A stretch of 20,914 nt of DNA from an uncultured Polaromonas sp. (GTDB lineage Bacteria > Pseudomonadota > Gammaproteobacteria > Burkholderiales > Burkholderiaceae). The position numbers were made by a program, and so were the translations under genes. Shown piece by piece: positions 2,358-19,905 of this stretch. The stretch covers positions 1 through 20,914 of the forward strand of contig CAMLDT010000039.1 in assembly GCA_946479075.1 (NCBI GenBank). Direction: 5' to 3'. The number at the start of each line of letters is the position of its first letter. Position 1 is the stretch's first letter. The notes below the pieces were generated by a model. The model had not been told where the DNA came from. It did not search any database and saw nothing but the letters and a program-made list of their open reading frames with translations.

Positions 2358-2386
2358 GGAGGGCAATCGTGAAGAGGTGGGGCTGC

Positions 2387-5245: not shown

Positions 5246-6622
5246 ATGATCCAGCCGCATTCATCCGACCCTTCCTCCAGCGAGACGCCGGCCGAATGTG
5301 ATGTGCTGGTGATCGGCGGTGGCCCTGCAGGCGCTACCGCGGGGGCGTTGCTGGCGCAACGCGGCCATAACGTGGTGATTCTTGAAAAGGAACACCACCC
5401 GCGTTTTCACATCGGGGAGTCCCTGTTACCTGCCAATTTGCCCCTGTTTGAGAAACTGGGGGTGGCCGACGCCGTCAAGGCCATCGGCATGGAAAAGTGG
5501 GGCGCCGAATTTGTGTCGCCCTGGCATGCCGCCAAAAGCCAGACCTTCGAGTTTGCCGACGCCTGGGACAAGTCCATGCCTTTTTCCTACCAGGTGAGGC
5601 GCTCCGAGTTTGATGAAATCCTGATCCGGAATGCGGCGCGTCTGGGGGCCGACGTTATTGAAGGCTGCCGCGTCAAGGGCGTGGCGTTCAAGCGTGACGG
5701 CAGCGGTGCGACGGTGCAGGCGCAGCGCGACGACGGGAGCCCCTGCAACTGGCGCGCGCGTTTCGTGGTCGATGCCTCTGGCCGCGACACCGTGCTTGGC
5801 AAACAGTTCGACATCAAGCGGCGCAACCCCAAACACAACAGCTCGGCGCTTTATGGCCACTTCATCGGTGCGACGCGCCACCCCGGCCAGGCCGAGGGCA
5901 ACATCACCATCTTCTGGTTCGACCACGGCTGGTTCTGGTTCATTCCGCTGGCCGACGGCTTCACCAGCGTGGGGGCGGTGGTCTGGCCCCACTACTTGAA
6001 AAGCCGCACCAAGCCGGTCAGGGAATTTTTTCTCGACACCATCGCCATGTGTCCGGCCCTGACGGAACGGCTGGCCGGGGCCACGTTGTCTTCGGAGGTG
6101 GAAGCCACCGGCAATTTTTCCTACGCTTGTGACCGCACCCATGGGCCGGGCTACGTGATGATCGGCGACGCCTTCACCTTCATCGACCCGGTGTTTTCTT
6201 CCGGGGTGATGCTGGCGATGCAGGGCGGCTTTGTGGGCGCGGAAACCGTGGACACCTGCCTGCGCGAACCCGCGAAGGCCGCGGCGGCCCTGGCCCATTT
6301 CGACCGCCAGGTGCGCAAGGGCCCCAAGGAGTTTTCGTGGTTCATCTACCGTGTGACCAACCCGACCATGCGCGACCTGTTCATGGCGCCCAGTAATGTC
6401 TGGCGTGTCAAGGAAGCCCTGTTGTCCATGCTGGCGGGCGACATATTCGGCAAGACGCCGATCTGGCGGTCGCTGCGGGTGCTCAAGGGCATCTTTTACA
6501 TTGCCTCGGCGCTGAATTTCAAGCGCTCCCTGCAGGCCATGCGCCTGCGCAAGGCCAACATCCGCGTGGTGGATGCCGCGGACGCAGAGGCCGCAGTGCA
6601 TGGCGCGCCGCTGGCGCGCTGA
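5246..6622 (+). CDS. flavin-dependent halogenase-like FAD oxidoreductase
   Basis: This 458-residue protein has the FAD-binding GxGxxG (GGGPAG, 24-29) and a second FAD motif GDAF (307-310). It also carries flavin-dependent halogenase hallmarks: Lys84 in MEKWGAEF, a complete WxWxIP motif (WFWFIP, 229-234), and a DPVFSSG loop (314-320) like the FxPxSG region of the family. Such enzymes use FADH2, oxygen and halide to make hypohalous acid, which reacts at the lysine and halogenates an aromatic ring. In an aryl polyene cluster the aryl head group is the obvious target, as in brominated xanthomonadins. AGGGA at 5234-5238 is a well-placed ribosome site for the ATG at 5246; the frame continues upstream only as an antisense shadow of mutS. 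It is the first gene of a plus-strand trio, with three bases before the next start. A monooxygenase or reductase role remains possible. Confidence 0.85.
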   Translation: MIQPHSSDPSSSETPAECDVLVIGGGPAGATAGALLAQRGHNVVILEKEHHPRFHIGESLLPANLPLFEKLGVADAVKAIGMEKWGAEFVSPWHAAKSQTFEFADAWDKSMPFSYQVRRSEFDEILIRNAARLGADVIEGCRVKGVAFKRDGSGATVQAQRDDGSPCNWRARFVVDASGRDTVLGKQFDIKRRNPKHNSSALYGHFIGATRHPGQAEGNITIFWFDHGWFWFIPLADGFTSVGAVVWPHYLKSRTKPVREFFLDTIAMCPALTERLAGATLSSEVEATGNFSYACDRTHGPGYVMIGDAFTFIDPVFSSGVMLAMQGGFVGAETVDTCLREPAKAAAALAHFDRQVRKGPKEFSWFIYRVTNPTMRDLFMAPSNVWRVKEALLSMLAGDIFGKTPIWRSLRVLKGIFYIASALNFKRSLQAMRLRKANIRVVDAADAEAAVHGAPLAR

Positions 6623-6625
6623 GTC

Positions 6626-7441
6626 ATGGATTACAAGCCGCAAGCCCTGCTGGATGACGCCCTGGACATTCACGTCAGGCCGACCCGCCTGCACGAGAGT
6701 CTTCGCATGTATCTGGGTTACGGGGTGCTCGGTGTCATCTGCCTCGCCGTGACCCTGCTGGCTTTTCCGGTGCGCGCGCTGCTTCCACGCGCCTTAAGCC
6801 GGCGGTTTGGGCGCAGGGTGGTGACGCACAGCACCCGCGCCTACCTCCATTTTTTGACGCGCATGGGGGCATGCCGCTTCGACCTGTCGGCGCTGGACGC
6901 GCTTCGGGATGCGCCAGCCATGGTCATCGCGCCCAACCACCCCGGGCTGCTCGACGCCCTGATGATCCTGTCGCGCCTGCCCGATGCCGCGTGCATCATG
7001 AAGGCCGAACTGGTCAACAGTGTGTTTTTTGGCGCTGGTGCCAGGCTGGCAGGGCATATCCGCAACACGCCGATTCGCACCATGGTCAAGCTCGCCGTGG
7101 ACGACCTGGACCGCGGCAGTCATTTGCTGCTGTTCCCCGAGGGCACCCGAACCACGCGATTCCCGGTGGGCCCGATGCAGGGCACCGCCGGCCTGATTGC
7201 CAAGAAAGCCGGTGTGCCGGTGCAGACGGTTTTCATCGAAACCGATTCCGGTTTTCTCGGCAAGGGCTGGTCCTTGCTGTGGACGCCCAAAATGCCGATC
7301 ACTTTTCGGGTGCGCCTTGGCAAACGGTTTGAGCCGCCTTGCGACACGGCTCAGTTTGTCTGCGAACTTGAACACTATTTCCAGTCAGAACTGGCCCATG
7401 CGCAACTGCCGGTATTCCCCGCCAGGGCGCCGTCCGCCTGA
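6626..7441 (+). CDS. PlsC-like 1-acyl-glycerol-phosphate acyltransferase family protein
   Basis: This 271-residue protein has the HX4D catalytic motif in NHPGLLD (His105, Asp110) and the phosphate-binding FPEGTRT motif (170-176), in the spacing of the PlsC family. One hydrophobic segment at about 28-52 should anchor it to the inner membrane. Family members move an acyl group from ACP or CoA to a glycerolipid or another hydroxyl. In aryl polyene clusters such acyltransferases are thought to attach the polyene or a fatty acid to the lipid carrier, and that is the likely role here. It starts three bases after the halogenase stop and is followed by the glycosyltransferase after 39 bases, so the three probably form one transcript. 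Confidence 0.87.
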   Translation: MDYKPQALLDDALDIHVRPTRLHESLRMYLGYGVLGVICLAVTLLAFPVRALLPRALSRRFGRRVVTHSTRAYLHFLTRMGACRFDLSALDALRDAPAMVIAPNHPGLLDALMILSRLPDAACIMKAELVNSVFFGAGARLAGHIRNTPIRTMVKLAVDDLDRGSHLLLFPEGTRTTRFPVGPMQGTAGLIAKKAGVPVQTVFIETDSGFLGKGWSLLWTPKMPITFRVRLGKRFEPPCDTAQFVCELEHYFQSELAHAQLPVFPARAPSA

Positions 7442-7480
7442 ACCACGGGCCGCCTGCTTTTCCCATTGCCTGTTGACCCG

Positions 7481-8269
7481 ATGACCGTTTCCGAATCCCG
7501 TACTCCGACGCCCGGCGCTTCGCTTTCCCATCTGGTCCTGATTCCCAGCTACAACCCCGGCCCCAAGGTGTATGAGACCGTGCGGTCGGCGCGGGCGCAG
7601 TGGACACCGGTCTGGGTGGTGGTCGATGGCAGCAGCGACGGCAGCGCCGAAGGGCTGCTGGCCATGGCAGGGCAGGACCCGGGCCTGCAGGTGATGGTTC
7701 TGCCGCACAACGTCGGCAAGGGCGCGGCGGTGCTGCAGGGCATAGACCGCGCGGCGGCCCAGGGATTCACCCACGTCCTGACGATGGACTCCGACGGCCA
7801 GCATCCGGCGCACCTGATTCCGCCATTCATGGCCGCTTCGGCGGCCCAGCCGCAGGTGATGGTGCTGGGCGTGCCGGTGTTCGCCGCCGACGCACCGCGG
7901 CTGCGCGTGAATGGCCGCAAGGTTTCCAATGGCTGGGCGAATCTGGAAACCCTGTGGGCAGGTATCGGGGACTCGCTGTTCGGTTTTCGGGTGTACCCAA
8001 TTGCACCGCTCAGCAAGGTCATGCACGGCCAGCGCTGGATGCGCCGTTTTGACTTTGATCCCGAGGCTGTGGTGCGCATGTGCTGGAGGGGCGTGAAGCC
8101 CGTCAACCTGCCGGCCACCGTCAAATACTTCCGGATCGACGAAGGCGGGGTGTCGCACTTCAACTACCTGCGCGACAACCTGCTGCTGACCTGGATGCAC
8201 TCGCGGCTGTTCCTGGGTTTTCTTGTTCGCCTGCCCCTGCTGATCTGGCGACGCGTCCAAGGCCTCTAG
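7481..8269 (+). CDS. family 2 glycosyltransferase
   Basis: This 262-residue protein has a GT2 fold: LIPSYNPG near the N-terminus, VVVDGSSDGS (47-56), NVGKGAA (77-83) and the metal-binding DSD in TMDSDGQHP (Asp103, Asp105). The C-terminus has a short hydrophobic stretch before RRVQGL, so it may sit on the membrane. It should move a nucleotide-sugar residue onto a lipid or polyene acceptor; GT2 genes of this kind are regular members of aryl polyene clusters. An in-frame TTG at 7466 would add five residues, but the ATG at 7481 gives the cleaner N-terminus. It ends the plus-strand unit and faces the convergent operon across a hairpin-rich repeat. Confidence 0.87.
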   Translation: MTVSESRTPTPGASLSHLVLIPSYNPGPKVYETVRSARAQWTPVWVVVDGSSDGSAEGLLAMAGQDPGLQVMVLPHNVGKGAAVLQGIDRAAAQGFTHVLTMDSDGQHPAHLIPPFMAASAAQPQVMVLGVPVFAADAPRLRVNGRKVSNGWANLETLWAGIGDSLFGFRVYPIAPLSKVMHGQRWMRRFDFDPEAVVRMCWRGVKPVNLPATVKYFRIDEGGVSHFNYLRDNLLLTWMHSRLFLGFLVRLPLLIWRRVQGL

Positions 8270-8276
8270 CGGTCAG

Positions 8277-8384: not shown

Positions 8385-9116
8385 CTAGATCATCCCGCCA
8401 TTGATGGAAATGATCTGGCCGCTGATGTAGGCCGCCTGTTCGGACGCCAGGAAGCCGACAAGATCGGCGACTTCTTCCGCCTTGCCTGCGCGTTTCATCG
8501 GGACCATGCGGTCGATCACATCCTTGCTGAATGCGCCCTGGGTCATGGCGGTGTCGATGATGCCGGGTGCCACGGCATTGACCGTGATGCCGCGGCTCGC
8601 GACTTCGAGGGCCAGTGATTTGGTTGCCGCATGCAACGCGCCCTTGGCGGCTGAATAGTTGACCTGTCCGCGGTTGCCGGCCACCGCAGCCACCGAGGTG
8701 ATGGTGATAATCCGGCCCCAGCGTGTGCGGATCATCGGCATGGTCAGCGGTTGGGTCACATGGAAGAAACCATTGAGCGACACATCGAGCACGCGCTGCC
8801 ACTGGGCCAGTTGCATGCCGGGGAAGACGGCGTCGTCGTGGATACCGGCGTTGTTGACCAGCACCTGGATGGGCCCGTCGTCGAGCAGGGTTTGCAGCGC
8901 CAGGGCGGTGGCTGCGGCGTCGGTCACGTCAAACGCCACGGCCTGGGCCTGGCCACCCTGGGCCACGATGTCGGCGGCGACCGCCTGCGCAGCAGCCAGA
9001 TGGCTGTTGGCGTGAACGATGACGGCGAAACCATCTGCCGCAAGGCGCCGGCTGATGGCCGAGCCCAGGCCGCCGCTGCCACCGGTAACCAAAGCGCGTT
9101 TGAGGCTTGTATTCAT
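8385..9116 (-). CDS. 3-oxoacyl-ACP reductase (FabG/ApeQ-like)
   Basis: This is a 243-residue short-chain dehydrogenase. It has the NADPH-binding TGGSGGLG (11-18), the NNAG motif (88-91), and the catalytic Asn115, Ser141, Tyr154 and Lys158. The spacing is that of FabG, and the C-terminus SGQIISINGGMI is typical of 3-oxoacyl-ACP reductases. It would reduce the 3-keto group after each condensation so that the dehydratases can make the next conjugated double bond. It is the last gene of the long minus-strand operon. Its ATG overlaps the stop of the upstream dehydratase by four bases (ATGA). Confidence 0.92.
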   Translation of the reverse strand: MNTSLKRALVTGGSGGLGSAISRRLAADGFAVIVHANSHLAAAQAVAADIVAQGGQAQAVAFDVTDAAATALALQTLLDDGPIQVLVNNAGIHDDAVFPGMQLAQWQRVLDVSLNGFFHVTQPLTMPMIRTRWGRIITITSVAAVAGNRGQVNYSAAKGALHAATKSLALEVASRGITVNAVAPGIIDTAMTQGAFSKDVIDRMVPMKRAGKAEEVADLVGFLASEQAAYISGQIISINGGMI

Positions 9117-9628
9117 GGCGGTGTCGATGCGTTGGAAGAAACCGGGGCCAGCGCGGATGCGTCAAGCACCACCACGGCGCGGCCGCTGAGCAGGGATTGG
9201 CCGCCGGCCTGCACGTCAAAGCTGTACAGCACGGTGCTGGCATCGCCGGTCAGCCGGTCCGCACGGATGGTCAGTTCGCCGGCACAGGCGTCCAGGCGCT
9301 CAACGAAAAGCGTGACGCCGCGCATGCTGGCCAGGTAGCCGGCGCGCGGTGGCGTTGCGGATGTGTCCGGACCGGCCAGCGCTTCAGCGACCAATGCACC
9401 GTGCACGGCCATGGCCTGCGCGGCGTACTCCACACCGCAGGCGGCACCGAGCCGACCGTAGGCCCGCAGCGGGTGGTCGGGCCGGTGGTGGCTGCTGGCC
9501 AGGCAAACAATGTGATCGGCGTCCCAGCCGGTGACGCTGTCCAGCAGGCACATGGCACCCTGGTGAGGAATACGCCGTGCGATGTCTTGGTGCGCCAGCG
9601 CGGCAGGCGGATGCGGCGCCGTCAGCAT
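9113..9628 (-). CDS. hot-dog 3-hydroxyacyl-ACP dehydratase (ApeP-like)
   Basis: This 171-residue protein has the hot-dog signature IPHQGAMCLLD (His22 expected catalytic) and a helix with VEYAAQAMA (Glu67), the two residues that define FabA/FabZ-type dehydratases. The form matches the ApeP group of aryl polyene clusters. It probably removes water from the 3-hydroxyacyl-ACP, working next to the ketoreductase and alongside the ApeI-like dehydratase encoded at 17175-17495. Family assignment is from motifs and context. The ATG at 9628 overlaps the end of the chain-length-factor gene by seven bases, and the stop overlaps the ketoreductase start. Confidence 0.82.
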   Translation of the reverse strand: MLTAPHPPAALAHQDIARRIPHQGAMCLLDSVTGWDADHIVCLASSHHRPDHPLRAYGRLGAACGVEYAAQAMAVHGALVAEALAGPDTSATPPRAGYLASMRGVTLFVERLDACAGELTIRADRLTGDASTVLYSFDVQAGGQSLLSGRAVVVLDASALAPVSSNASTPP

Positions 9629-10452
9629 GCTTCCACCTGCACGGCCAGTTGCAGGCCATCGAGGTAATCAAGCACGACCTCGCCGCGGTCCTGCCGGGCC
9701 ACACTGCGAAGCAGCGTCAGGCAACGTGCAGCCGGAATGCTGGCGCGAAGCTGCTCCAGCACCGGATCGTCCATGGCACTGGCGCTGTCGCCCGTGAGGC
9801 AGGCGGCGGGCGCCAGGCGCCAGCGCGCCAGGCTGCGTTCGCTGCGTTGCGGCGTCAGCACCAAGGCCACGCCGAACGAGTCCGGCAGCGGCCGCACGCT
9901 GTGCAGCGGCTCGGGGTAGTCGGTGTCGTAGGCCACCAGCAGCACGGGTGTCTGATCGGCCGCTGCCTGCGCCACCGCTTCGAGCAGGCCGGCCGCAAAA
10001 CTGCCGTCGTAGGCACACAGCACGGAGGAGGTCGCCATGGAGCCGCTGGAGATGCTCCAGTAGCCGGATGAGGCGTTGTGCACCGAGTTGTGAAACCGGG
10101 TGGGAGAGATCAGCCGGTCGCTGGAAGCCAGCGCGCTGCAGATTTCATGGCAATTGATGGCGTCACCGCTGGAGGAGGTGAACACCGAGGGCAGGCCCGC
10201 TGCGGGCAACCCGGATGCGCTCAGCGCTTCCTGGCCAACGGCCAGCGAGACCTTTACCACGGCACCCGCACGGCGGCGCTCCGCGGCGGGCAAGGCCATG
10301 GGCAGGGGCAGCACACACCGCGCCGGGGCGTACGCCGTCCGGCCCGACAGTATTTCGCGGCCGGCTTCCCAGCTCGACAGGCCGGGGCCCAGCAGGCCCA
10401 CGCCTTCAACATAAACCGAAAGGGACGGTGCAGCGGAAGCAGGCTGTGTCAT
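9622..10452 (-). CDS. beta-ketoacyl synthase chain-length-factor homologue (ApeC-like)
   Basis: The 276-residue protein is thiolase-like but short and lacks the Cys-His-His triad. Where a ketosynthase has its active Cys there is instead SSVLCAYDGS, and the late His motifs are absent. The FTSSSGD (91-97) and HNSVHNASSGYW (121-132) stretches are typical of the chain-length-factor-like family found in aryl polyene clusters. It should pair with the adjacent ketosynthase in a heterodimer and shape the pocket that sets polyene length. Its ATG at 10452 overlaps the ketosynthase TGA as ATGA, consistent with one-to-one synthesis of the two subunits. The open frame upstream of 10452 is a shadow of the ketosynthase gene. 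Confidence 0.87.
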   Translation of the reverse strand: MTQPASAAPSLSVYVEGVGLLGPGLSSWEAGREILSGRTAYAPARCVLPLPMALPAAERRRAGAVVKVSLAVGQEALSASGLPAAGLPSVFTSSSGDAINCHEICSALASSDRLISPTRFHNSVHNASSGYWSISSGSMATSSVLCAYDGSFAAGLLEAVAQAAADQTPVLLVAYDTDYPEPLHSVRPLPDSFGVALVLTPQRSERSLARWRLAPAACLTGDSASAMDDPVLEQLRASIPAARCLTLLRSVARQDRGEVVLDYLDGLQLAVQVEAC

Positions 10453-11651
10453 CGCTGTTTCCCCGCACGGCCAAAAATCAGGCTGCAGTTGGTGCCGCCA
10501 AAGCCGAAGGAGTTGCTCAGTACGCGCTGGACGGTTTGCTGCCGGTTGTTCAGCAGGTAGTTCAGCGGCAGGGCCGGGTCCAGGTGCTGCGTGTTCAGGC
10601 CCGCCGGCAACAGGCCGTTCTGCAGGGCCAACGCGCAAATGACCGCCTCCAGCCCGCCCGCTGCACCGAGGGTGTGACCGGTGGCGCCCTTGGTGGAACT
10701 GCAGGGCGTGAGCGGCCCGAACAAGCTCGTCACGGCCCTGGTTTCGGCGGCGTCATTGCTCGGCGTGGCCGTGCCATGCAGATTGATGTAGTCAATCTCC
10801 GCAGCATCCAGCCCCGCCGCTGCCAGCGCCTGCTGCATGGCCATGCGTGCACCCAGTCCCTCCGGATGGGGTGAGGACATGTGGTGGGCATCGCTGGATT
10901 CGCCAATGCCCAGCAGCAATACGGCGTCGTCTTCCGGGTGTTGGGGCACCGGTTCAAGCAGCGCAAAAGCGGCGGCTTCACCGATGGAAATGCCGTCGCG
11001 TTCCGCATCGAAGGGCCGGCAGGCCCGGGTGGAAATCAGGCCGAGGGCGTTGAATCCATACAGCGTTGTGAGGCACAGCGAATCGACCCCGCCGACCACC
11101 GCGGCGTCAATCAGCCCGGCGGCCATCATGCGTTGCGCCGACGCAAACACCTTGGCACTGGATGAGCAGGCCGACGAAACCACCACCGCCGGGCCTGCCA
11201 GATCGAGGCAGTGGCGTGTGAAGTCGGCGACGGAGAAGGTGTTGTGGGTGGTCCGGTAGCAAAAATCGGCAGGAAAGGCGCCGGTGGCCGGATCAAGCCG
11301 GCGGTAGGCCAGTTCTGTCTGCAAGATGCCCGACGTGCTGGTGCCGATGAAGATACCGATGCGCTGTGCGCCATATTTCTGGCGCGCGGCAGCCACGGCC
11401 TCGATAAAACCGTCCTGCGCCAGCCCCAGCAGCGCGAGGCGGTTGTTGCGGCAGTCAAACGCTGCCAGCGGCGCAGGCAATGCGACCTCGTCCACCCCTG
11501 CCACTTCGCCGACAAAGGTCGGCAGATCGACCGTGTCAAACGCACACGGCGCCAGGCCGCCGCGCTGCCCGCGCAAGGCGTCGAGGGTCTGCTGGAGGCC
11601 GCGGCCGACGCTGCTGGTCGCGGTGAAGTGGGAAAGCCAGAGCGGGTTCAG
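10449..11651 (-). CDS. beta-ketoacyl-ACP synthase (FabB/F-like, ApeO-like)
   Basis: This is the condensing enzyme that should add two-carbon units to the aryl starter. The triad is complete: Cys162 in SSACSSSA, His292 in NLHGTATPSND and His326 in KGATGHTLGAAGG (400-residue numbering). The C-terminal SNSFGFGGTN is also present. The first ordinary start codon in frame is a TTG at 11576 (375 residues), but that cuts off the first strand and helix of the fold. The 25 codons before it read WLSHFTATSSVGRGL and then QQTLDA, clearly ketosynthase-like. The only start-like codon that keeps them is a CTG at 11651, which I use. CTG starts are rare, and a base change or frameshift near 11648-11683 is an alternative. 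The gene is the first after the only real gap in the operon and overlaps the chain-length-factor gene by ATGA. Confidence 0.88.
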   Translation of the reverse strand: MNPLWLSHFTATSSVGRGLQQTLDALRGQRGGLAPCAFDTVDLPTFVGEVAGVDEVALPAPLAAFDCRNNRLALLGLAQDGFIEAVAAARQKYGAQRIGIFIGTSTSGILQTELAYRRLDPATGAFPADFCYRTTHNTFSVADFTRHCLDLAGPAVVVSSACSSSAKVFASAQRMMAAGLIDAAVVGGVDSLCLTTLYGFNALGLISTRACRPFDAERDGISIGEAAAFALLEPVPQHPEDDAVLLLGIGESSDAHHMSSPHPEGLGARMAMQQALAAAGLDAAEIDYINLHGTATPSNDAAETRAVTSLFGPLTPCSSTKGATGHTLGAAGGLEAVICALALQNGLLPAGLNTQHLDPALPLNYLLNNRQQTVQRVLSNSFGFGGTNCSLIFGRAGKQR

Positions 11652-11724: not shown

Positions 11725-12426
11725 TCAGGCGGCCAGATAGGGGCGGTACTCATGCGCCCGCGTGCGCACCACGTGACGCAGCGACCAGCCCGCAGTGACA
11801 CTGCCCAGCAGCAGCCCGGCCCACATGTCCACGGCGACATGCTGGCGTGTCGCCACCGTCGAGTAAACAATGCCCAAGCACCACAGGGCATTGATGAGGC
11901 GGACCCAGACCGGCGCGCCAAAACGGCGCAGCAACCGGTGCAGCCAGAAGCCCGAAAAAACCGCGGTGGCCACATGCAGGGAGGGGCAGGCATTGCCGCC
12001 GGCATCCATGTTTTTGAGGAAGTCCACCCCCGGGTGCAAAGTCCAGTCGATGTCGGCCGGTGGAATCGCCGTCGGCCAGAAGTAAAAGATCAGCAGCCCG
12101 CTCAGGCAGGTGGCCGTCATGGCCAGGCTGAAGATCCAGAGTTCACGCCGGCTCGCCAGAAAGGCCGGCGGCAGCGACACGTACACCCACAGGGAAACGT
12201 ACAGGGGCAGAGCCCCGGGGTTGAAGCCGATGATGCGGTCCAGCAGGGTCACCGGCATCACCGTGACGGGAAAAGCCGGGTGCTTGAGCACATAAAAATA
12301 AGCGGCAAAAAACACGGCGATAAAAGCCGGAATGCCTATGCTTTTCAGAAGGACATCCCGGGGCACGAGCCGCGCCGCCTGGCGGTACCAGGCCAGCGCC
12401 TGCCCTTGTACCGGGGGCGTGTTCAT
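11725..12426 (-). CDS. PAP2-type membrane phosphatase or phosphotransferase
   Basis: The 233-residue protein has about five or six membrane segments and the PAP2 motifs PSLH (148-151) and R194-Q-H196-x3-D200. The PSLH rather than PSGH form, and the RxHxxxD block within a helix, resemble the PAP2 subgroup that includes inositol-phosphoryl-transferase-like enzymes. It would act on a lipid phosphate or pyrophosphate, or pass a phosphoryl head group between lipids, with its active site on the periplasmic side. Placed between a polysaccharide deacetylase and the ketosynthase, it may finish the lipid or phosphate anchor of the pigment; that is inference. Its ATG overlaps the deacetylase stop by four bases. 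I do not consider this a core aryl polyene gene. Confidence 0.83.
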   Translation of the reverse strand: MNTPPVQGQALAWYRQAARLVPRDVLLKSIGIPAFIAVFFAAYFYVLKHPAFPVTVMPVTLLDRIIGFNPGALPLYVSLWVYVSLPPAFLASRRELWIFSLAMTATCLSGLLIFYFWPTAIPPADIDWTLHPGVDFLKNMDAGGNACPSLHVATAVFSGFWLHRLLRRFGAPVWVRLINALWCLGIVYSTVATRQHVAVDMWAGLLLGSVTAGWSLRHVVRTRAHEYRPYLAA

Positions 12427-13232
12427 GCCATCGCCTCGGGCAAGGTCACGGGTTTGAGGCCGGCCGCTGCGGCAGAGGCCAGCACGGCGGGCAGCACGTC
12501 AAGGATCACCGGAACGCCGCCAGGTGTGCGGGCCGCATTGCCGTCATGCAGCAACACGATGGCGCCGGCTTTCATGCCGGGCAGCAAGGCGCCGGCGACA
12601 CGCTTCGCATCGCCGATGCGGGTGTCAAAACCGCGCACCGACCAACTGGCCAGCCGCAGCCCCATGCGTGCGAGAACGGGCTCCAGAAAGGGATTGCGCA
12701 GCCCCGCCGGAGCGCGAAAAAAGAGCGGGCGGCGGCCGGTGATGGCAACCAGCGTGTCCTGGGCGGCCTGCAGCTCGCGCGCCATGCTGCGTGGCCCCAG
12801 CATGGAAAAGGTGTGGCGATGGTGCTGGCTGTGGTTTTCAACCGCGTGGCCGCGGCGGACAATCTCGCGGCACAGCGCCGGGTAGCGCGCAGCTTTTTCC
12901 CCAATGCAGAAAAAAGTCGCCCGGGCGGCGTGCCGGTCCAGCAGGTCCAGCACCTGCGGCGTGACCTGCGGGTCGGGCCCGTCGTCGATGGTCAGGGCAA
13001 TTTCATTGCGGGCCGCGGCGGCCGCGGGCAAGCGTGACCAGTTCGGCCCGAGCCAGTGGCTGCGCGGCCACAGGCCGACGCCGGTCACCACCGCGTGGTT
13101 GGCAACAACGGCGGCCAGTGCCCAGGGCCAGAGCCCGGGCACCGCGACAGCAGCGGCCAGCGCCAGCGCGTGTAGCGCCAGGGAGGCGCGGATCAGGGGC
13201 GCGGCGTGCCAGCGCGGCTCAGACCTGGGCAT
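12423..13232 (-). CDS. polysaccharide deacetylase family protein
   Basis: This 269-residue protein belongs to the NodB-like carbohydrate esterase 4 fold. Motif 1 is TIDDGPDP (Asp83, Asp84), motif 2 is NHSQHH (metal ligands His134 and His138), motif 3 is RAPAG (Arg173), and the last motif is LLHDG (His229). Two hydrophobic segments at about 12-58 should anchor it in the inner membrane. The family removes acetyl groups from N-acetylated sugars in a metal-dependent way. Next to a cluster with a glycosyltransferase it could deacetylate the sugar placed on the lipid carrier, which is inference. The ATG at 13232 overlaps the exporter gene by 14 bases; the open frame further upstream is an antisense-free shadow of that gene. 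Confidence 0.88.
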   Translation of the reverse strand: MPRSEPRWHAAPLIRASLALHALALAAAVAVPGLWPWALAAVVANHAVVTGVGLWPRSHWLGPNWSRLPAAAAARNEIALTIDDGPDPQVTPQVLDLLDRHAARATFFCIGEKAARYPALCREIVRRGHAVENHSQHHRHTFSMLGPRSMARELQAAQDTLVAITGRRPLFFRAPAGLRNPFLEPVLARMGLRLASWSVRGFDTRIGDAKRVAGALLPGMKAGAIVLLHDGNAARTPGGVPVILDVLPAVLASAAAAGLKPVTLPEAMA

Positions 13233-15573
13233 CACGGGTTCTTTTCGCAAAAACCGCTGCATACACCAGCGCCAGGATGACGCCGGGCGCGACGGTGGCG
13301 CCCATGGCCTGCAGGATGGAAATTTTGGAAAAAGCCAGCAGCCCAAAGCCTGCCACCGTGGTGAGGTTGGCCAGCGCCATGGAGGCCAGCGTGCGATGCG
13401 AGATCGGGTCCAGCGGGTCGGGCCGGTCAAAAAACAGCGCGTAGTTCGAGCCCACAGCGACCACGAGCAAGAGACCGACCAGGTGAAGAATGATCAGCGG
13501 CTGGCCGGCCAGGGCCAGGCCCGCCGTGACTGTGACCACCGAGGCGGCCAGGGGCGCAATGGTGCGCAGCACCCGCAGCGGCGACCGGAACACCAGCAGC
13601 AAAAGGACGACGATGGAGAGCAGCCCGCCCAGCGACAGCAGCGTGGCTTCACGCAGGTAGCCGGAATACAGGCGGTCGGACTCGGCCTTCATGTCCACAA
13701 ACAGCACATCCGGCGAGTTGCTGCCCAGGGCGGCACGGATGTGGTCGGCCTGGATGCCGGCGCCTGCCGGAGCCCGCAACGGCAGCAATGCCGTCCAGCC
13801 ACCGCGTGATGACTGGAGCAGCAGCGCGTCAACGGCCATGGCCAGGGAAGTCCGTTCGAGATCGCTGGCCTGCAGCGGCTCGCGGCTGCGGCTGGCTTGC
13901 ACGTCCGCCAGGAAGGGCTCGAACACCTGGGCGCGCACCGGCAGGCCCTGCACCGCCTGTGCCAGGCGCGGCTGCAGGACTTCGGCCGGCGGCAGGCTGG
14001 CCTGCCGCGCGCGCTGGGTCGCCATGCTGGGCAGGTAGAAGCTGGGGCTGTCAAAGCCGGCAAGTTCGCCCTGGTCCACCTGGGTCTGCAGCAGGGCAGA
14101 CACCCGCCCGGAAGACGCCAGGACCGCTTCCCGGCTGGGACCCGAGATCACCACGACATAACGCACGTCAGGGGCGCCCATATCGGCGCGCAGGCTTTCG
14201 TCGAGCGCAATGTCGGCTTGCGAGACCGGGCTCAGCGAGGAAATCTTGTCGTTGAGCAGCGTGTCGCGGTGGGTGGCAAGTACAAGGCAGGCCGCAAGCA
14301 GCAGCGCCGCCGCTGGCCAGCGCAAGGCAGCAGCGCGGCGGGTGAGCTGGCTCAGCACGCGGCCTATCGCAGAAACGTCGTGAATACGAAACTTCGCCGG
14401 CAACAGATGTGGCAGGACAAAACGCGTCATGAGCGCCGCGGCGACCAGGCCGGCAATGGCGTACAGGCCCAGCTGCGCCAGACCCGGGAAGCCCGACAGC
14501 AGCAACGATGCAAAGCCGAAGATGGAGGTCAGCACCCCCAGCCGGATGGTCGGCCAGAAACGCTTGACCCAGCTTTCCTGGCTGTCGCCCGCCTGTTCGG
14601 ATTGCACGAACAGGTAGATGGAGTAATCCACCGCCTCGCCGATCAGCGCGGTGCCGAAGCCCAGGGTGATGCCGTGCACCGAGCCAAAGCCCAGGCTGAC
14701 AGCGGCCACGCCCGCCAGCACGCCGCTGAGGACCGGCAGGAAGCCGAGTGCCAGTGCGGTGGGCGAGCGGTACACCAGCAGCAACAGCGTGGCGATGATC
14801 ACGACGCTGATCAGCGACAGGCGGCTGACCTGGCTCTGGATCGCCTCGCGCGATGTCACCGAAAACACGCCGGGGCCGGTCATCACCAGCCTGGCGCTGG
14901 CGCTGTCCCGGCGCGCTGCGTCAAAGGCCTGGCGGATGGTGGCCATCGCGCTTTGCTGGGCGTCGGTGTCCGATCCGGCTGCGCGCGTTTGCACCAGCAT
15001 CAATGCGCGCTCGCCGTCGCGCGACGCCCAGGCGCCATCGATCAGGCGCGGCTGCGTGCCGCTGTCCAGTTGACCGAGCAGTTGAACCATCTCGCCGGTC
15101 GGGTCGCGCGGCAGCAGCGACTTGACCATCAGGCCGGCCGGCGAGGCCAGCAGGTCGATGCTTTCGGCCAGGGCGGCGTGCAGTCCCGCGGTGCTGAAGC
15201 GTTCCGGGGTCACCAGCGGGCTGAGCAGGTAGCGGTTGTCGAACAGGTAGGCGCGGTCACGCTCCTTGTTGACCGGTTCTCCGTTGTTGACCGTCACAAA
15301 CGCCGGGTCGGCGCGCAGGCCGCCTGCGACCGCTTTGGACAGCCGTGCACGTGCCGCAGCGTCTGCTCCCTCGATGCCGACCAGTATCAGGCGCGAGGCC
15401 AGACCGTCCTTGAGCTGGTCCATCAGCAATTGCTGCTCGGCCGTCGGGTTGCGCGGCAAAAACGCCGACAGGTCGGTGGTGATCTGCGTGCGGCTGATGA
15501 TGGCGCCGCAGCTCACCAAAAAAGCCATCCACAGCCAGACAGGCAACAGCTGACGGCGCAGCAGGCGGCTCAT
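13219..15573 (-). CDS. MMPL/RND-type exporter (ApeM-like)
   Basis: The 784-residue protein has the two-fold RND plan: one membrane helix at about 10-28, a large periplasmic loop, five helices at about 252-390, a helix near 418-434, a second loop, and five more helices from about 643 to 775. The first half carries GEAVDYSIYLF with Asp316, the residue expected to relay protons. In the second half the matching site reads VGSNYALFF, with Asn710 instead of Asp. MMPL proteins of this type accompany aryl polyene clusters and are thought to move the lipid-linked product out of the inner membrane, handing it to a LolA-like carrier. The upstream gene encodes such a carrier and its stop overlaps this ATG by four bases. 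Confidence 0.9.
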   Translation of the reverse strand: MSRLLRRQLLPVWLWMAFLVSCGAIISRTQITTDLSAFLPRNPTAEQQLLMDQLKDGLASRLILVGIEGADAAARARLSKAVAGGLRADPAFVTVNNGEPVNKERDRAYLFDNRYLLSPLVTPERFSTAGLHAALAESIDLLASPAGLMVKSLLPRDPTGEMVQLLGQLDSGTQPRLIDGAWASRDGERALMLVQTRAAGSDTDAQQSAMATIRQAFDAARRDSASARLVMTGPGVFSVTSREAIQSQVSRLSLISVVIIATLLLLVYRSPTALALGFLPVLSGVLAGVAAVSLGFGSVHGITLGFGTALIGEAVDYSIYLFVQSEQAGDSQESWVKRFWPTIRLGVLTSIFGFASLLLSGFPGLAQLGLYAIAGLVAAALMTRFVLPHLLPAKFRIHDVSAIGRVLSQLTRRAAALRWPAAALLLAACLVLATHRDTLLNDKISSLSPVSQADIALDESLRADMGAPDVRYVVVISGPSREAVLASSGRVSALLQTQVDQGELAGFDSPSFYLPSMATQRARQASLPPAEVLQPRLAQAVQGLPVRAQVFEPFLADVQASRSREPLQASDLERTSLAMAVDALLLQSSRGGWTALLPLRAPAGAGIQADHIRAALGSNSPDVLFVDMKAESDRLYSGYLREATLLSLGGLLSIVVLLLLVFRSPLRVLRTIAPLAASVVTVTAGLALAGQPLIILHLVGLLLVVAVGSNYALFFDRPDPLDPISHRTLASMALANLTTVAGFGLLAFSKISILQAMGATVAPGVILALVYAAVFAKRTRDAQV

Positions 15574-16196
15574 GGGGAGGCCAGCTTGTCGATCACCATG
15601 ACCGAACGGTCCTTGTCGGTCTGCTGGATTTCAATCGTCCTGACCTCTGCACGGCTGCCGGCGATGAGGATGCGCTGGACCACATCCAGCATTTTGGTTT
15701 CGATGGGGCGCAGGGTCAGCGTCCAGCGATCCTCCGAACCTTCAAGGTCAAGGTTGTAGATGCGCCGGAGTGCGGCCATGTCGCCGGCCAGGGTGCCGCG
15801 TATGCTTTCAGTGAAGGCGACCAGCTCCGGGTAGTCCTGCAGGCGCAGCACCATGCGGCGCTTGCCGCGCTCGACGGTGAGCTTGTCTCCGTCGATCAGC
15901 AGCGACTCGGGGCGCGGCTTGAGCGTGCGTTTTTCCAGGCGGTCCGGCGCGGTGTAGAGCAGCTCACCGGAGGATTCCACCGGTGCGTCGAGCAGGGCGA
16001 TGTATTTCTTTTCGACAAAGCTGGCGCGTCCGGACTTGTTCTGCGCCAGGCCTTGCATCAGTTGTGCCACGTCCCAGGCGGCCAGGGCTGGCAGGCACAG
16101 GGCGGCCAGAAGGACCGCGGCGGCCAGCTTGCCGGGCCGCAAGAAGATGCTGGAGCGGGAGCTGGCGCGGGGGGTGTCATTCATGGGGAGGTTCAT
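15570..16196 (-). CDS. LolA-like outer-membrane lipoprotein carrier protein
   Basis: The 208-residue protein has an N-terminal signal peptide: basic residues, then KLAAAVLLAALCLPALA with likely cleavage near residue 39. The mature part looks like the LolA/LolB fold, with an early FVEKKYIALLDAP strand and SGELLYTAPDRLEKRT. It should be periplasmic and carry a hydrophobic cargo, here probably the lipid-linked polyene, between the exporter and the outer membrane. Two ATG codons are possible, at 16196 and 16184; neither has a good Shine-Dalgarno. Either overlaps the acyltransferase end, and the gene's own stop overlaps the exporter start as ATGA. Confidence 0.85.
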   Translation of the reverse strand: MNLPMNDTPRASSRSSIFLRPGKLAAAVLLAALCLPALAAWDVAQLMQGLAQNKSGRASFVEKKYIALLDAPVESSGELLYTAPDRLEKRTLKPRPESLLIDGDKLTVERGKRRMVLRLQDYPELVAFTESIRGTLAGDMAALRRIYNLDLEGSEDRWTLTLRPIETKMLDVVQRILIAGSRAEVRTIEIQQTDKDRSVMVIDKLASP

Positions 16197-17178
16197 GGGG
16201 AGATACCGGGTGGGCCCTGGACGCGGAGAGCGGGGTGGATGAGGGCACGGCTGCGGTTGCGGCTAGTGCAGGCGGCCAGAAGTCGAAAAAATTGAACCAG
16301 TTGTAGGGGGCTGCACGGCAATACGTGCCCAGCAACTCGGCGTAGCGCGCCATCGCCGCTTGGACCGCAGCTTCACGGCCGCCTGCCGGGATGCGGGAGA
16401 AATCGGCAAGCGTTTCAAAGTGAATATCGTAGCGGTTGGCGCCCCCGTAAAGCCCAACCATGAACAAGACGGGCCGCCGCAGAATGGCTGCCATGCGAAA
16501 CGGCCCCACCGGGAATTCCGTGACTTCACCGAGAAACGGCACGGGCCGGGTGCTGTCCTGGTTCAGTCGGCGGTCGGCCAGCATGCCCACCACGCTGCCC
16601 CCTTCGATCAGCTCATGCACCCGGATCATGGAATCGGCATGGCCCAGCGCCACGATGTCCTGCTGCGCCGCCGGGTTGATCGCGCTCAGGGCTGCGTTGA
16701 TCTTGCGGGCGTTTTCCTCAAACATCACCATGGCTACCCGCAAGCCGGGCCGCCGCCGCCCGATGGCCCGCAAGACCTCGAAGCTGCCGACGTGTGCGCC
16801 CATCAGGAAGACGCCTTTTTGGTCGGCGGTCAGCTCGGAAATCAGGTGCTCGTTGTGAATGCGGATGTCAAACAGAGCGAAGCGGTCATTGATCAGGTAC
16901 ACCCGGTCATGCACGCAGGAGGCAAAACTCAAAAAATGGCGGAAGATGTGGCGCCAGCCGACCTGCTGGACGCCCAGGGACCGGCGCAGGTAGTCGCGCG
17001 ATGCCCGCCGCGCAAGCGCATTGGCCAGCACAAAATAGGCTGCAATGCCATACAGCACCAGCCGGCCGGCACGGCGGCCCAGCCGCAGGGATATCCAGGT
17101 CATCACCCGCAGCATCAGCATGTTGCTGCGCTCCGGCCGCTCTTGCCAGCCGGCTTTTTCAGGCTTGTCTTCGTTCAT
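16177..17178 (-). CDS. lipid A biosynthesis-type (LpxL/HtrB-like) acyltransferase
   Basis: The 333-residue protein has the HX4E motif of late lipid A acyltransferases in HVGSFE (His129, Glu134). It also has ADRRLNQ (201-207), PVPFLGEVTEFPVGPF and a C-terminal YNWFNFFDFW, all normal for the family. A hydrophobic segment at about 37-56 anchors it in the inner membrane. In aryl polyene clusters these enzymes are candidates for moving the finished polyene from ACP to the lipid carrier; this copy is more probably pigment-specific than a housekeeping LpxL, given its operon. The ATG at 17178 overlaps the dehydratase stop as ATGA, which fixes the start despite an open frame upstream. The last 30 residues are Ala/Pro-rich and probably disordered. 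Confidence 0.88.
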   Translation of the reverse strand: MNEDKPEKAGWQERPERSNMLMLRVMTWISLRLGRRAGRLVLYGIAAYFVLANALARRASRDYLRRSLGVQQVGWRHIFRHFLSFASCVHDRVYLINDRFALFDIRIHNEHLISELTADQKGVFLMGAHVGSFEVLRAIGRRRPGLRVAMVMFEENARKINAALSAINPAAQQDIVALGHADSMIRVHELIEGGSVVGMLADRRLNQDSTRPVPFLGEVTEFPVGPFRMAAILRRPVLFMVGLYGGANRYDIHFETLADFSRIPAGGREAAVQAAMARYAELLGTYCRAAPYNWFNFFDFWPPALAATAAVPSSTPLSASRAHPVSPHEPPHE

Positions 17179-17495
17179 GCCGCGCTGCTCATGCCGAGCA
17201 CGCCGGTCGCCACCTGGCGACCGGAACCGGCGATGGCAAACCGGACCTGACCCTGCTGCGTGTCGCTCCACGACAAGCTCAGCACTTCCCCCGGCAACAC
17301 CGGGCTGAGGAACTTGGCCGTATTGACCTGGCAGGTGCGGGTGCCGCGCTCATTGCTGCCTGCCGGCTGGGCCTGCAGCACCGCATGGATGGCAGCATCC
17401 AGCAGCAGCACGCCCGGCACGATGGGCCGGCCAGGGAAGTGGCCCGCAAACGCCGGGTGGCTGGCCGGAAAGGTGAGGCTGGTTTCACCCTGCAT
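17175..17495 (-). CDS. small hot-dog 3-hydroxyacyl-ACP dehydratase (ApeI-like)
   Basis: This 106-residue protein is a FabZ-like single hot-dog unit. The motif HPAFAGHFPGRPIVPGV gives the catalytic His19. Fourteen residues later, where FabZ has its catalytic Glu, there is Asp33 in LLLDAA. It should dehydrate 3-hydroxyacyl-ACP intermediates on the growing polyene, complementing the ApeP-like enzyme. The ATG at 17495 overlaps the AMP-ligase end by 11 bases, and the stop overlaps the acyltransferase start. A longer open frame exists upstream but lies wholly within the ligase gene and lacks hot-dog residues. Confidence 0.85.
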   Translation of the reverse strand: MQGETSLTFPASHPAFAGHFPGRPIVPGVLLLDAAIHAVLQAQPAGSNERGTRTCQVNTAKFLSPVLPGEVLSLSWSDTQQGQVRFAIAGSGRQVATGVLGMSSAA

Positions 17496-18888
17496 GCTGT
17501 CCGCCTTTCTGGCGAAAAGAGGCGAGGTGGTCCTGTGCCAGGGCCTGCAAGGCCTCCCGGGGGAGCTTGCCGGTGCCGTTGCGCGGCAGCGCATCGAGAA
17601 GCACCAGCGGACGCGGCAGAAACGTGGTGTCAATGCGTTTTTTCAGCGCGGCCTGCAGATCAGCTGCGCTCATGCCGGGCGCGACGGCGAAAGCCATCAG
17701 GCGCACCACGGCTTCTGCCTCGTCATCATCGGGCATGAAAAAAGCGCCGTCCCGCACGCCATCAATGCTCAGAAGCTGGTGATTGAGGTAACCCAGCGAG
17801 CTGCGCTTGCCGGCGATGTTGATGAGGTCACTCAATCGGCCGTGCAGGAAAAAGCGGTGGTTGTCGATGGGTTCCAGCACGTCGTTCATGGCAACGACCT
17901 GCTCGACGTGACCGCCGCTGGCCCACATGCGCTGGTCGTGCGGCGTCAGCGTCACCAGCGGGAACAGCACCCACTGGTCGGTCTGCGCACTGCGGCGCGA
18001 CGCGATCTGCCCGGTTTCGGTGGAACCGTAGATTTCGAACAGCGGCGCAGCAAAACCTGTTTCGCAGCTTCGGGCCAGCGCCGGTGCCATCGGTGCGGTG
18101 GCCGACACGACGAGGTCCAGGGCGGGCAGCTCGACGCTGGAGGAAAGCAGCACCCGCAAATGCACCGGTGTGCTGACCAGCACGCGGGGGCGCGGCACGG
18201 ACTGGAGGGCGCTGACGATATCGGCGGGATAAAACGGCTGGCCGGCGTGGATGGCCGAAGCGCTTTGAAGGGCCATCAGCACCGTTGATTCAAAGCCGAA
18301 CATGTGCTGTGGCGGCACCGTGCCCACAATGCTGTGCGGGCGGATCCGGCCCGAGCCGGAGCCCGGGTCCAGGCCCAGGCGCATGGCTTCGGCCCGCGCG
18401 CTTTGCACCAGGGCTCCCCAGGTTTTTCGATGCGGTTGCGGCATGCCGGTTGAGCCGGAGGTAAAAACATCGGCCACCGGCTGGTTGCCCGGAAACAGCG
18501 GAATGTCGCAGCTTGCTCCCGGGTCGTCATCGGCCATCCCCTGCGCGAAGGCATCCTGGTAGGCGAAGCCGGGCAACTGGATGGCATGGGGCGCGTCGGT
18601 CAGGCAAAACACGTCGGGGGTGAGCGCCTGCAACTGCCGGATCATCTCAGGCGTGTGTGTCGGCGGCAGCAGGCTGATCTTGCGCGCGACCAGGGCCGCA
18701 CCGAGACCCACGGTGAAGTGATAACGGTCGCTGCAGGCATTGAGCATGTGCCGGCCCGCGGGCAACTGTGCGGCCAACTGCCGCACATCGGCAACGAACT
18801 GGCGCACGGTGATGCGCTCGCCATAGCGCCATGCCACGATGTCATCGGGGTGATCGTGGGAAACGAGGGCAAAGTGGGTGACAGGCAT
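17485..18888 (-). CDS. AMP-dependent aryl/acyl-ACP ligase (ApeH-like)
   Basis: The 467-residue protein is an adenylate-forming enzyme. It has the P-loop FTSGSTGMPQPHRK (142-155), YGSTETG (287-293), LHGRLSDLINIAGK (348-361) and the catalytic lysine in NGTGKLPR (Lys441). It is shorter than fatty acyl-CoA synthetases (about 540), as expected for the small aryl-acid ligases of aryl polyene clusters. It should activate an aromatic starter acid such as a hydroxybenzoate or hydroxycinnamate and load it on the ACP; the exact acid cannot be read here. The ATG at 18888 lies ten bases after the membrane protein stop. No aromatic-acid synthesis gene is visible in the window, so the starter must come from elsewhere. 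Confidence 0.88.
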   Translation of the reverse strand: MPVTHFALVSHDHPDDIVAWRYGERITVRQFVADVRQLAAQLPAGRHMLNACSDRYHFTVGLGAALVARKISLLPPTHTPEMIRQLQALTPDVFCLTDAPHAIQLPGFAYQDAFAQGMADDDPGASCDIPLFPGNQPVADVFTSGSTGMPQPHRKTWGALVQSARAEAMRLGLDPGSGSGRIRPHSIVGTVPPQHMFGFESTVLMALQSASAIHAGQPFYPADIVSALQSVPRPRVLVSTPVHLRVLLSSSVELPALDLVVSATAPMAPALARSCETGFAAPLFEIYGSTETGQIASRRSAQTDQWVLFPLVTLTPHDQRMWASGGHVEQVVAMNDVLEPIDNHRFFLHGRLSDLINIAGKRSSLGYLNHQLLSIDGVRDGAFFMPDDDEAEAVVRLMAFAVAPGMSAADLQAALKKRIDTTFLPRPLVLLDALPRNGTGKLPREALQALAQDHLASFRQKGGQHAG

Positions 18889-18898
18889 GGGCGAACGC

Positions 18899-19573
18899 TC
18901 AGGTGGGCGGACGGGCAGCGCCAGAACCGGCCTGCCGCCAGGCGCGGATCGCGTCGAGTGGGCCCGAGCGGTCTGCTGGCGAGAGCAGGATGAGGCGCGC
19001 ACTGTATTCAGCGGCAAACATCAGCACCAGCAGCGGAAGGTTCAGCAGGTTCGCAAACACCGACCACACGGCCACGGGCGCCAGCCAGAACAGCAGCAGC
19101 GACAGCGCCGTCATGGCCGCAAAATAAACCGTCCAGGCCCAGGTGACCTGCCGGGTGTAGCGCGCCAGGGCGGGCGACAGCTCCTTGCCGTGGGCGATGG
19201 CGGCCAGGCTGGACACCATGGGGACTTCACCGGCGCGCAGGGTGCGGCCGAAGGCCAGACCCAGCAAGGCCTGGATGCCCGCGTGCTGCAACAGGAACAC
19301 CCAGTTGAAATGTTGTACCAGCCAGTGGCGTGAGGCATACAGAACCAGTGCGGCGCTCAGGCACAGCAGCAGCATCCAGGACCGATGCGGCGAACGCCAG
19401 GCCAGCACTGCGCCCAGGGCCAGAGGTGGCGCCATGGCGACCGCCGCGTCGAACAGGTCGGGGTGGGGGTCGGCGGCGGCCAGATGGGCCAACACCGGGT
19501 AAGCGACACAGAAGGCGGCAATGCCTGCCCAGCGAACGCCTCGCAGCAGCTGTGCCGTCAAGCCGGGTTTCAC
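18899..19573 (-). CDS. aryl-polyene-cluster integral membrane protein (COG4648-like, ApeG-like)
   Basis: This 224-residue protein has about six hydrophobic segments (roughly 14-33, 46-60, 65-82, 91-106, 144-165 and 168-190) and a basic, soluble C-terminal tail. It has no catalytic motif I recognise. Its length, membrane pattern and position between ACP and AMP ligase match the uncharacterised membrane protein regularly found at this place in aryl polyene clusters. Its function is unknown; a scaffold for the assembly enzymes at the inner membrane is only a guess. The GTG start at 19573 overlaps the ACP stop by four bases (GTGA). Confidence 0.75.
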   Translation of the reverse strand: MKPGLTAQLLRGVRWAGIAAFCVAYPVLAHLAAADPHPDLFDAAVAMAPPLALGAVLAWRSPHRSWMLLLCLSAALVLYASRHWLVQHFNWVFLLQHAGIQALLGLAFGRTLRAGEVPMVSSLAAIAHGKELSPALARYTRQVTWAWTVYFAAMTALSLLLFWLAPVAVWSVFANLLNLPLLVLMFAAEYSARLILLSPADRSGPLDAIRAWRQAGSGAARPPT

Positions 19574-19869
19574 TTCGTTCTTTGCTGCGCGATATGGTTG
19601 CTCAGGCTGCGCAGCGACTTGAAAATGACCGTGTTGTCTTCATGATCTGCGCGCAGTTGCAGGCCGTAGCGCTTGGACACCACCAGCGCAATTTCCAGGA
19701 TGTCGATGGAGTCCAGGCCCAGGCCGTCGCCATACAGCGGCTCGTCCGGCTGGATGTCGGCGGCAGCCGTTTCCAGGTTGAGCGAAGAGACCACCAGCTC
19801 GGCGACTTCGCCCATCAGGGCCGGGTCGGCAAGGGCGGGTGCGGAGGTGGAAGCAGAGGAGTCGGACAT
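19570..19869 (-). CDS. acyl carrier protein of the polyene pathway
   Basis: The 99-residue protein is an ACP with the phosphopantetheine site GLGLDSIDILE, Ser54 being the attachment residue. After a disordered Ser/Ala-rich start of about 15 residues it follows the normal four-helix pattern. It should carry the aryl starter and growing polyene between the ligase, the ketosynthase pair, the ketoreductase and the dehydratases. The ATG at 19869 is chosen because upstream in-frame sequence is non-coding and forms a leader hairpin. It is the first gene of the twelve-gene operon. Canonical aryl polyene clusters have two ACPs; only this one is visible. Confidence 0.92.
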   Translation of the reverse strand: MSDSSASTSAPALADPALMGEVAELVVSSLNLETAAADIQPDEPLYGDGLGLDSIDILEIALVVSKRYGLQLRADHEDNTVIFKSLRSLSNHIAQQRTK

Positions 19870-19905
19870 CGTGGACGTGAACCTTGTTTTTTCGGAATTT
19901 TGGGG

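What the first reader, a model, noticed from the sequence alone, without database searches (positions are those of the whole stretch)
5246..6622. Complete flavin-dependent halogenase signature beside an aryl polyene cluster
The FAD enzyme keeps GxGxxG, a candidate catalytic Lys84, WFWFIP (WxWxIP) and DPVFSSG. Most described aryl polyenes are not halogenated; xanthomonadins are the brominated exception. A betaproteobacterial cluster with an intact halogenase-like gene could make a new halogenated polyene lipid.
Basis: partly seen in the sequence, partly recalled or inferred. Interest (0 to 1): 0.72.

Follow-up and report, generated by a model that had tools for sequence, protein, structure and literature searches.

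The report
Known-type halogenase-like enzyme in pigment cluster
A Polaromonas-like bacterium carries a yellow-pigment gene cluster with an intact halogenase-like enzyme, but the enzyme belongs to a widespread, already annotated family whose best comparable pigment contains no halogen, so a new halogenated pigment is possible but not shown.

Summary
The 458-aa protein at 5246-6622 (+) has every motif claimed and folds like flavin-dependent halogenases (FDHs). Lys84 and WxWxIP are almost invariant in 361 proteins, under purifying selection. By score it is no geranylgeranyl-type reductase. It lies inside, not merely beside, an aryl polyene cluster.

The step to "a new halogenated polyene" is weak. 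The protein is an ortholog of an Azoarcus-like ArcA and of XanB1-type proteins of probable Xanthomonas (one clade, 99/99). ArcA was printed as "halogenase" in a betaproteobacterial polyene cluster in 2014, yet arcuflavin, from LB with NaCl, is C41H52O4: no halogen and, by my count, no extra oxygen.

New here: probable Xanthomonas clusters hold a second, distant FDH ("H-type", about 26% identical) beside KS-CLF-GT. It is missing from the window and from an Azoarcus-like genome. In a Xanthomonadaceae-family sample both types occur together in 77 of 198 genomes. H-type may be the pigment brominase, or each type may place one of xanthomonadin's two bromines.

Verdict: a new member of a known kind. 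True halogenase chemistry is slightly under even odds; pigment halogenation in this organism is unproven.

The parts
5246..6622 (+). XanB1/ArcA-type flavin-dependent halogenase-family protein, 458 aa
5315..5332 (+). GGGPAG (GxGxxG, FAD binding), residues 24-29
5495..5497 (+). Lys84 codon; aligned with the Lys of the C-1027 plasmid halogenase (SgcC3, name recalled), CndH, FasV, ChlB4, Mpy16 and 3nix
5930..5947 (+). WFWFIP (WxWxIP), residues 229-234
6185..6205 (+). DPVFSSG (halide-site loop region), residues 314-320
6626..7441 (+). PF01553 acyltransferase (ArcD-like), three bases after the halogenase stop
7466..8269 (+). family 2 glycosyltransferase (ArcE-like)
8385..9116 (-). ketoreductase (SDR)
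9113..9628 (-). probable dehydratase; no Pfam hit, named by position and by 54% identity to the gene in the same place in L124
9622..10452 (-). chain-length-factor-like protein (Ketoacyl-synt_2)
10449..11576 (-). ketosynthase
11725..12426 (-). PAP2 phosphatase
12423..13238 (-). polysaccharide deacetylase family
13219..15573 (-). MMPL exporter
15570..16196 (-). LolA-like outer membrane carrier
16177..17151 (-). lipid A-type acyltransferase
17485..18894 (-). AMP-binding ligase (likely hydroxybenzoate ligase, inferred from ArcT)
18899..19573 (-). conserved cluster protein without Pfam hit
19570..19872 (-). acyl carrier protein

Best explanation
The protein is a variant (CmlS/CndH-like) flavin-dependent halogenase-family enzyme of the XanB1/ArcA subfamily, a conserved gene of beta- and gammaproteobacterial aryl polyene clusters. 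Shown by sequence: family, clade, intact motifs, selection, linkage. Inferred: it takes FADH2 from a separate reductase, forms C4a-hydroperoxyflavin, oxidises halide (more likely bromide) to HOX, and Lys84 directs it to the electron-rich hydroxyaryl head group of a free or ACP-bound intermediate. Whether the finished pigment is halogenated depends on halide supply and is not implied by the gene.
Against: Arcuflavin, from a strain with an ArcA 'halogenase', is C41H52O4 and nonbrominated, no other derivatives found, although the LB medium had 0.5% NaCl: this argues against chlorination of the pigment; bromide is not mentioned. Probable Xanthomonas has a second candidate brominase. PMC3838355 says XanB1 is among four ORFs required for xanthomonadin biosynthesis, which a mere tailoring step would not explain. 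The margin of the CmlS over the QhpG profile is only 20 bits for P0001, against 139 for the C-1027 halogenase. True QhpG, a hydroxylase, has Trp181 and Trp183 in its channel, so WxW alone is no proof. CmlS (35.3) and the first hydroxylase (34.8) are tied in Z, and the halogenases PltM and CtcP are not in the 50 entries shown while many hydroxylases are. The loop before Lys84 is one residue shorter than in the references and its reach was not measured.
Confidence: 0.47

Rival explanations
1. XanB1/ArcA is an FDH-fold flavoenzyme that does a non-halogenating job in the aryl polyene pathway (a redox or quality-control step on the chain or head group, or a transient oxidation), and the pigment halogenase of Xanthomonas is the separate H-type protein.
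For: Non-halogenated arcuflavin with ArcA annotated in the cluster; its four oxygens are all used by methoxy, ester and phenol (my count). No H-type in the Azoarcus-like genome G404, H-type in 6 of 6 probable Xanthomonas genomes tested. PMC3838355 calls XanB1 'putative reductase/halogenase' beside a separate 'H = halogenase' and lists XanB1 among ORFs required for the pigment. FDH-like hydroxylases such as QhpG exist, with WxW in the channel, and the QhpG profile scores only 20 bits below CmlS.
Against: Lys84, which the two LodB/QhpG-like controls lack, is almost invariant. Best sequence matches of known function are halogenases. Bromide was not supplied to Azoarcus, as far as the passages read show. 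L. enzymogenes is reported to lack a halogenase gene in its cluster and still makes the polyene, so an essential role is not general.
Confidence: 0.39
2. A true halogenase whose substrate is not the polyene (for example free hydroxybenzoate, another phenol, or a resorcinol partner).
For: FDHs such as RadH and PltM act on free phenolics (recalled). The Variovorax sp. PDNC026 ortholog has only a PAP2 match of the window's cluster genes within 12 kb, and G001 has a second copy, 62% identical, with no cluster gene in a 13-kb stretch.
Against: Linkage to polyene genes: 56 of 80 loci and 25 of 35 class-sample loci (my count) have 3 or more.
Confidence: 0.08
3. A geranylgeranyl-type reductase or a decayed gene.
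For: TIGR02032 matches at 113.7 bits.
Against: Below that family's cut-off of 158.8 and below CmlS at 190.8; omega 0.078-0.096 and an intact frame.
Confidence: 0.03

Closest known systems
ArcA (azo3921), Azoarcus sp. BH72 arcuflavin cluster (PMC3949708)
   Same: Polyene cluster gene annotated as halogenase.
   Different: The window has no XanB2 chorismatase, MipA, semialdehyde dehydrogenase or Na/H exchanger, and its cluster is one locus where Azoarcus has two. BH72 itself was not fetched.
XanB1 of Xanthomonas ('putative reductase/halogenase', PMC3838355)
   Same: Same clade and motifs; in the probable Xanthomonas genome G639 it lies between ACP and XanB2, as the Xam figure legend lists them.
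   Different: 45-49% identical; those clusters also carry the H-type FDH.
H-type halogenase of the xanthomonadin cluster (taken as Xam 0075 from its place in the legend)
   Same: FDH motifs GES, Lys, WxWxIP, FLDPFYSPG.
   Different: About 26% identical to P0001, next to KS-CLF-GT; absent from the window.
FasV, CndH, C-1027 halogenase (SgcC3, recalled name), CmlS, PltA, Mpy16, RadH
   Same: Fold and motifs; FasV, CndH, Mpy16 and the C-1027 protein align at about 30-38% identity.
   Different: Those put in the tree lie outside the polyene clade (CmlS, PltA, RadH were not put in); substrates differ.
QhpG / LodB / GoxB flavoprotein maturases
   Same: QhpG shares the FDH-like fold, channel and a W-x-W pair.
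   Different: The two LodB/QhpG-like genomic proteins lack the Lys and WxWxIP; P0001 is under the QhpG cut-off. The Lys position of QhpG itself was not seen.

Membership tests
Flavin-dependent halogenase (variant CmlS/CndH type) | GxGxxG FAD motif | tested here: met
Flavin-dependent halogenase (variant CmlS/CndH type) | WxWxIP | tested here: met
   residues 229-234
Flavin-dependent halogenase (variant CmlS/CndH type) | Catalytic Lys at the aligned position | tested here: met
   Lys84 by alignment; one-residue shorter loop before it
Flavin-dependent halogenase (variant CmlS/CndH type) | Lys at the end of the HOX tunnel in space | not testable with these tools
   model coordinates are not exposed
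Flavin-dependent halogenase (variant CmlS/CndH type) | Ser/Thr-Gly halide loop after DPxxS | tested here: met
   DPVFSSG, sequence only
Flavin-dependent halogenase (variant CmlS/CndH type) | FDH fold | tested here: met
   hydroxylases share the wider fold and CmlS is tied with the first of them
Flavin-dependent halogenase (variant CmlS/CndH type) | Halogenation activity with FADH2, O2 and halide | not testable with these tools
   bench assay needed
XanB1/ArcA subfamily | Falls in one clade with XanB1-like and ArcA-like proteins | tested here: met
XanB1/ArcA subfamily | Linked to aryl polyene genes | tested here: met
H-type xanthomonadin halogenase | Close similarity to the FDH beside KS-CLF-GT | tested here: not met
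   about 26% identity; no H-type in the window at E 1e-40
Geranylgeranyl reductase | TIGR02032 above cut-off | tested here: not met
   113.7 against 158.8 bits
CmlS equivalog | NF033113 above cut-off | tested here: not met
   190.8 against 900 bits
QhpG | NF049967 above cut-off | tested here: not met
   170.7 against 240 bits
Aryl polyene (xanthomonadin-type) cluster | KS with CLF-like partner, KR, ACP, AMP-ligase, LolA and MMPL exporter together | tested here: met
   the dehydratase is by position only, no XanB2 in the window

The most novel reading that the evidence does not exclude
Two-halogenase model: the XanB1/ArcA type and the H-type each place one bromine of dibrominated xanthomonadins (ring and polyene positions, recalled). 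A cluster with XanB1/ArcA alone, as in the window, would then make a mono-halogenated polyene, but only when bromide is available, so that 'non-halogenated' aryl polyenes of betaproteobacteria are partly an effect of growth media.
Probability: 0.2. Interest if true: 0.55.

Novelty: new member of a known kind. Interest (0 to 1): 0.36.

Why it matters
[quoted passage not shown] If it halogenates, some pigments thought plain may be halogenated in nature; if not, the members now annotated as halogenases (Azoarcus arcA, some records) are misnamed. The presence of two FDH types, together or singly, in the Xanthomonadaceae-family sample makes the question testable by single deletions and bromide feeding in harmless strains.

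Tried and rejected
Own genome: none is held, so flavin reductase, chorismatase and a possible H-type gene elsewhere in the window's organism were not searched; its nearest relatives differ (G001 and G002 have an H-type, G003 does not). A named Xanthomonas sequence was not obtained: the one genome-contig scan kept the best 80 of 549 relatives, all close to the window. That G639, G685, G692, G727, G582 and G708 are Xanthomonas is inference from their family (Pseudoxanthomonas names for L109), genome size and gene order. BH72 was likewise not fetched; G404 stands for it. Geranylgeranyl reductases were compared by profile and PDB score, not in a tree. No QhpG above cut-off was found in 339 genomes or in the 4; LodB/QhpG-like L165 and L115 served as controls. 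L115 found no PDB chain at 1e-15. The tree is a selection: 8 of 80 loci, 22 of the 30 class-sample loci L081-L110, 4 of 8 low-identity members, 4 of 6 xan-like proteins. A first tree with the two LodB/QhpG-like rows had very long branches; the second left out these and g_L108, g_L099, g_L110. Three of the four low-identity rows outside the clade (L159, L160, L161) also have several polyene-type matches nearby, so polyene linkage is not unique to the clade. The H-type protein was not put in a tree. Bias: the 80 loci were found with patterns that include MEKWGAEF and WFWFIPLA, so their motif counts (79 of 80; exact DPVFSSG 78 of 80; L062 the shared miss, cause not followed up) prove little. One search lacks that bias: of 30 class-sample loci 29 show Lys and WxWxIP, and L098 is cut to 54 aa by a stop. 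One search holds only top hits of three queries. Several contigs were too short to show neighbours. The search on bromine and chlorine gave nothing useful. arcA was not searched by name in the papers.

Full report
OBSERVATION. The ORF at 5246-6622 (+) gives 458 aa with GGGPAG at 24-29, GES at 57-59, Lys84, WFWFIP at 229-234 and DPVFSSG at 314-320. PF04820 Trp_halogenase matches at 100.5 bits (cut-off 21). In 361 aligned proteins (the query and the listed best hits of three searches) position 84 is K in 360 and N in 1, and W229, W231, I233 and P234 are present in all 361. Of 30 orthologs from a class sample, 29 show the Lys and WxWxIP and one is cut short by a stop. Against four Polaromonas-type loci (L001-L003, L023) omega of the gene is 0.078-0.096. 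The finding is real and not chance.

SURROUNDINGS. The gene heads a + strand trio: acyltransferase (6626-7441) and GT2 glycosyltransferase (7466-8269) follow. A - strand set runs from 19872 down to 8385: ACP, an unknown, AMP-ligase, acyltransferase, LolA, MMPL, deacetylase, PAP2, KS, CLF-like, probable dehydratase, KR. Among the best 80 relatives with flanks up to 10 kb the acyltransferase is matched in 74, GT in 73, KR in 57, KS in 53, and 3 or more of 12 - strand cluster genes in 56. In the class sample 43 of 369 genomes match at 1e-50, 35 of them at 43% identity or more; of these 35 loci, 25 have 3 or more of 14 cluster genes (my count from the rows; several contigs are short). So the gene is a standing part of this cluster type. 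The closest relatives are Polaromonas (91%).

PHYLOGENY. In a 52-row tree of selected proteins 42 rows form one clade (99/99) against 10 others: the C-1027 protein, CndH, FasV, ChlB4, Mpy16, 3nix and four low-identity proteins, three of which (L159, L160, L161) also have polyene-type matches nearby. The clade holds the window, an Azoarcus-like protein (L124), Caballeronia (L164), Variovorax (L163), a Pseudoxanthomonas-type protein (L109, named through) and four probable Xanthomonas proteins.

THE BEST COMPARISON CASE. PMC3949708 (passages) lists arcA (azo3921) of Azoarcus sp. BH72 as halogenase, followed by arcB XanB2, arcC MipA-type, arcD acyltransferase, arcE GT, arcF N-acetyl-gamma-glutamyl-phosphate reductase, arcG antiporter and arcH ketoreductase, with a dehydratase row beside it. 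Arcuflavin is C41H52O4, a nonbrominated aryl heptaene, with no other derivatives found; the four oxygens are accounted for by methoxy, ester and phenol (my count). Cultures were in LB with 0.5% NaCl, so chlorination should have been possible; the word bromide does not occur in that text. Hence a gene of this type does not by itself predict a halogenated pigment. PMC3691225 (passages) already reported halogenase genes in the clusters of two Xanthomonas species and, in its Figure 5 legend, their absence from L. enzymogenes and Xylella fastidiosa; among its examples is Variovorax paradoxus, a betaproteobacterium.

A SECOND HALOGENASE TYPE. PMC3838355 (passages) labels two such genes in the xanthomonadin cluster of Xanthomonas axonopodis pv. 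manihotis: 'H = halogenase' and 'XanB1 = putative reductase/halogenase', the latter listed between ACP and XanB2; it says XanB1 and XanB2 are among four ORFs required for the pigment. In the probable Xanthomonas genome G639 the window's ortholog lies between ACP and XanB2 (45% identity), and another FDH (L221:12063-13685, about 26% identical to P0001, with GES, Lys, WFWLIP and FLDPFYSPG) lies after KS-CLF-GT. I call it H-type; that it is the paper's 'H' rests on position. In 20 chosen genomes a close H-type (57-100%) is in 9: six probable Xanthomonas (one is the query's own), G377 and the two nearest Polaromonas (G001, G002). It is not in the other 11, including G003, the Azoarcus-like G404 and G022, which show only the weak cross-match of about 30%. 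It is not in the window or the 80 loci. In G001 the H-type sits among genes such as acyl-CoA dehydrogenase, thiolase and AceK; in the stretches held around it in G001 (about 9 kb each side) and G002 (2 kb and 10 kb) no cluster gene of the window was found. In a family sample of 198 genomes XanB1-type is in 101 (E 1e-60) and H-type in 94 (E 1e-80). Taking both calls as the same set: both 77, XanB1-type only 24, H-type only 17, neither 80 (the Fisher P of 3e-17 ignores relatedness).

INTERPRETATION. I give 0.47 that the window enzyme has halogenase chemistry acting in this pathway, resting on almost invariant Lys84 and WxWxIP, and 0.39 that it does another job there while H-type is the pigment brominase. 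A bolder reading is that the two types place the two bromines of xanthomonadin I (that it is dibrominated is in PMC3691225; the two positions are recalled). None of this is tested at the bench. No paper on the activity of XanB1 or ArcA turned up in the held library (4 papers; 3 papers, two of them seen only as listings); the library lacks most subscription journals.

NOVELTY. The gene is a new member of a known kind: a halogenase annotation in betaproteobacterial polyene clusters was already in print. The two-type pattern is the part a specialist may not expect.

Noticed in passing
L001, L002, L003 against window 5246-11576: Mosaic cluster: halogenase, acyltransferase, GT and KR are 85-91% identical while KS is 69-71%, which suggests replacement of part of the cluster.
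   Followed up: partly
L221:12063-13685 and L195:9385-10668: Probable Xanthomonas pigment clusters hold two different FDH-family genes; in a 198-genome family sample both types co-occur in 77.
   Followed up: partly
L232 (H-type at about 9115), L235 (halo-type at about 9156), both genome G001: A close Polaromonas relative has an H-type gene among housekeeping genes and a second, 62% identical XanB1/ArcA-type copy with no cluster gene of the window in a 13-kb stretch.
   Followed up: partly
window 1530-2360 (-): Proteasome-family protein (PF00227), possibly Anbu-like (recalled), next to mutS.
   Followed up: no
L163 (Variovorax sp. PDNC026 megaplasmid): Ortholog at 52% identity with only a PAP2 match of the window's cluster genes within 12 kb.
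   Followed up: no
G009, G146, G189, G082, G464, G493, G528, G445, G555 matches: Some tblastn matches include one stop codon; in G189 (L098) the frame read from the match start ends after 54 aa. Gene ends or broken genes: not checked.
   Followed up: no
PDB 3nix; L160: The best fold match is an uncharacterised Cytophaga flavoprotein; its tree neighbour L160 has matches to 10 of 14 polyene cluster genes nearby, some weak.
   Followed up: no
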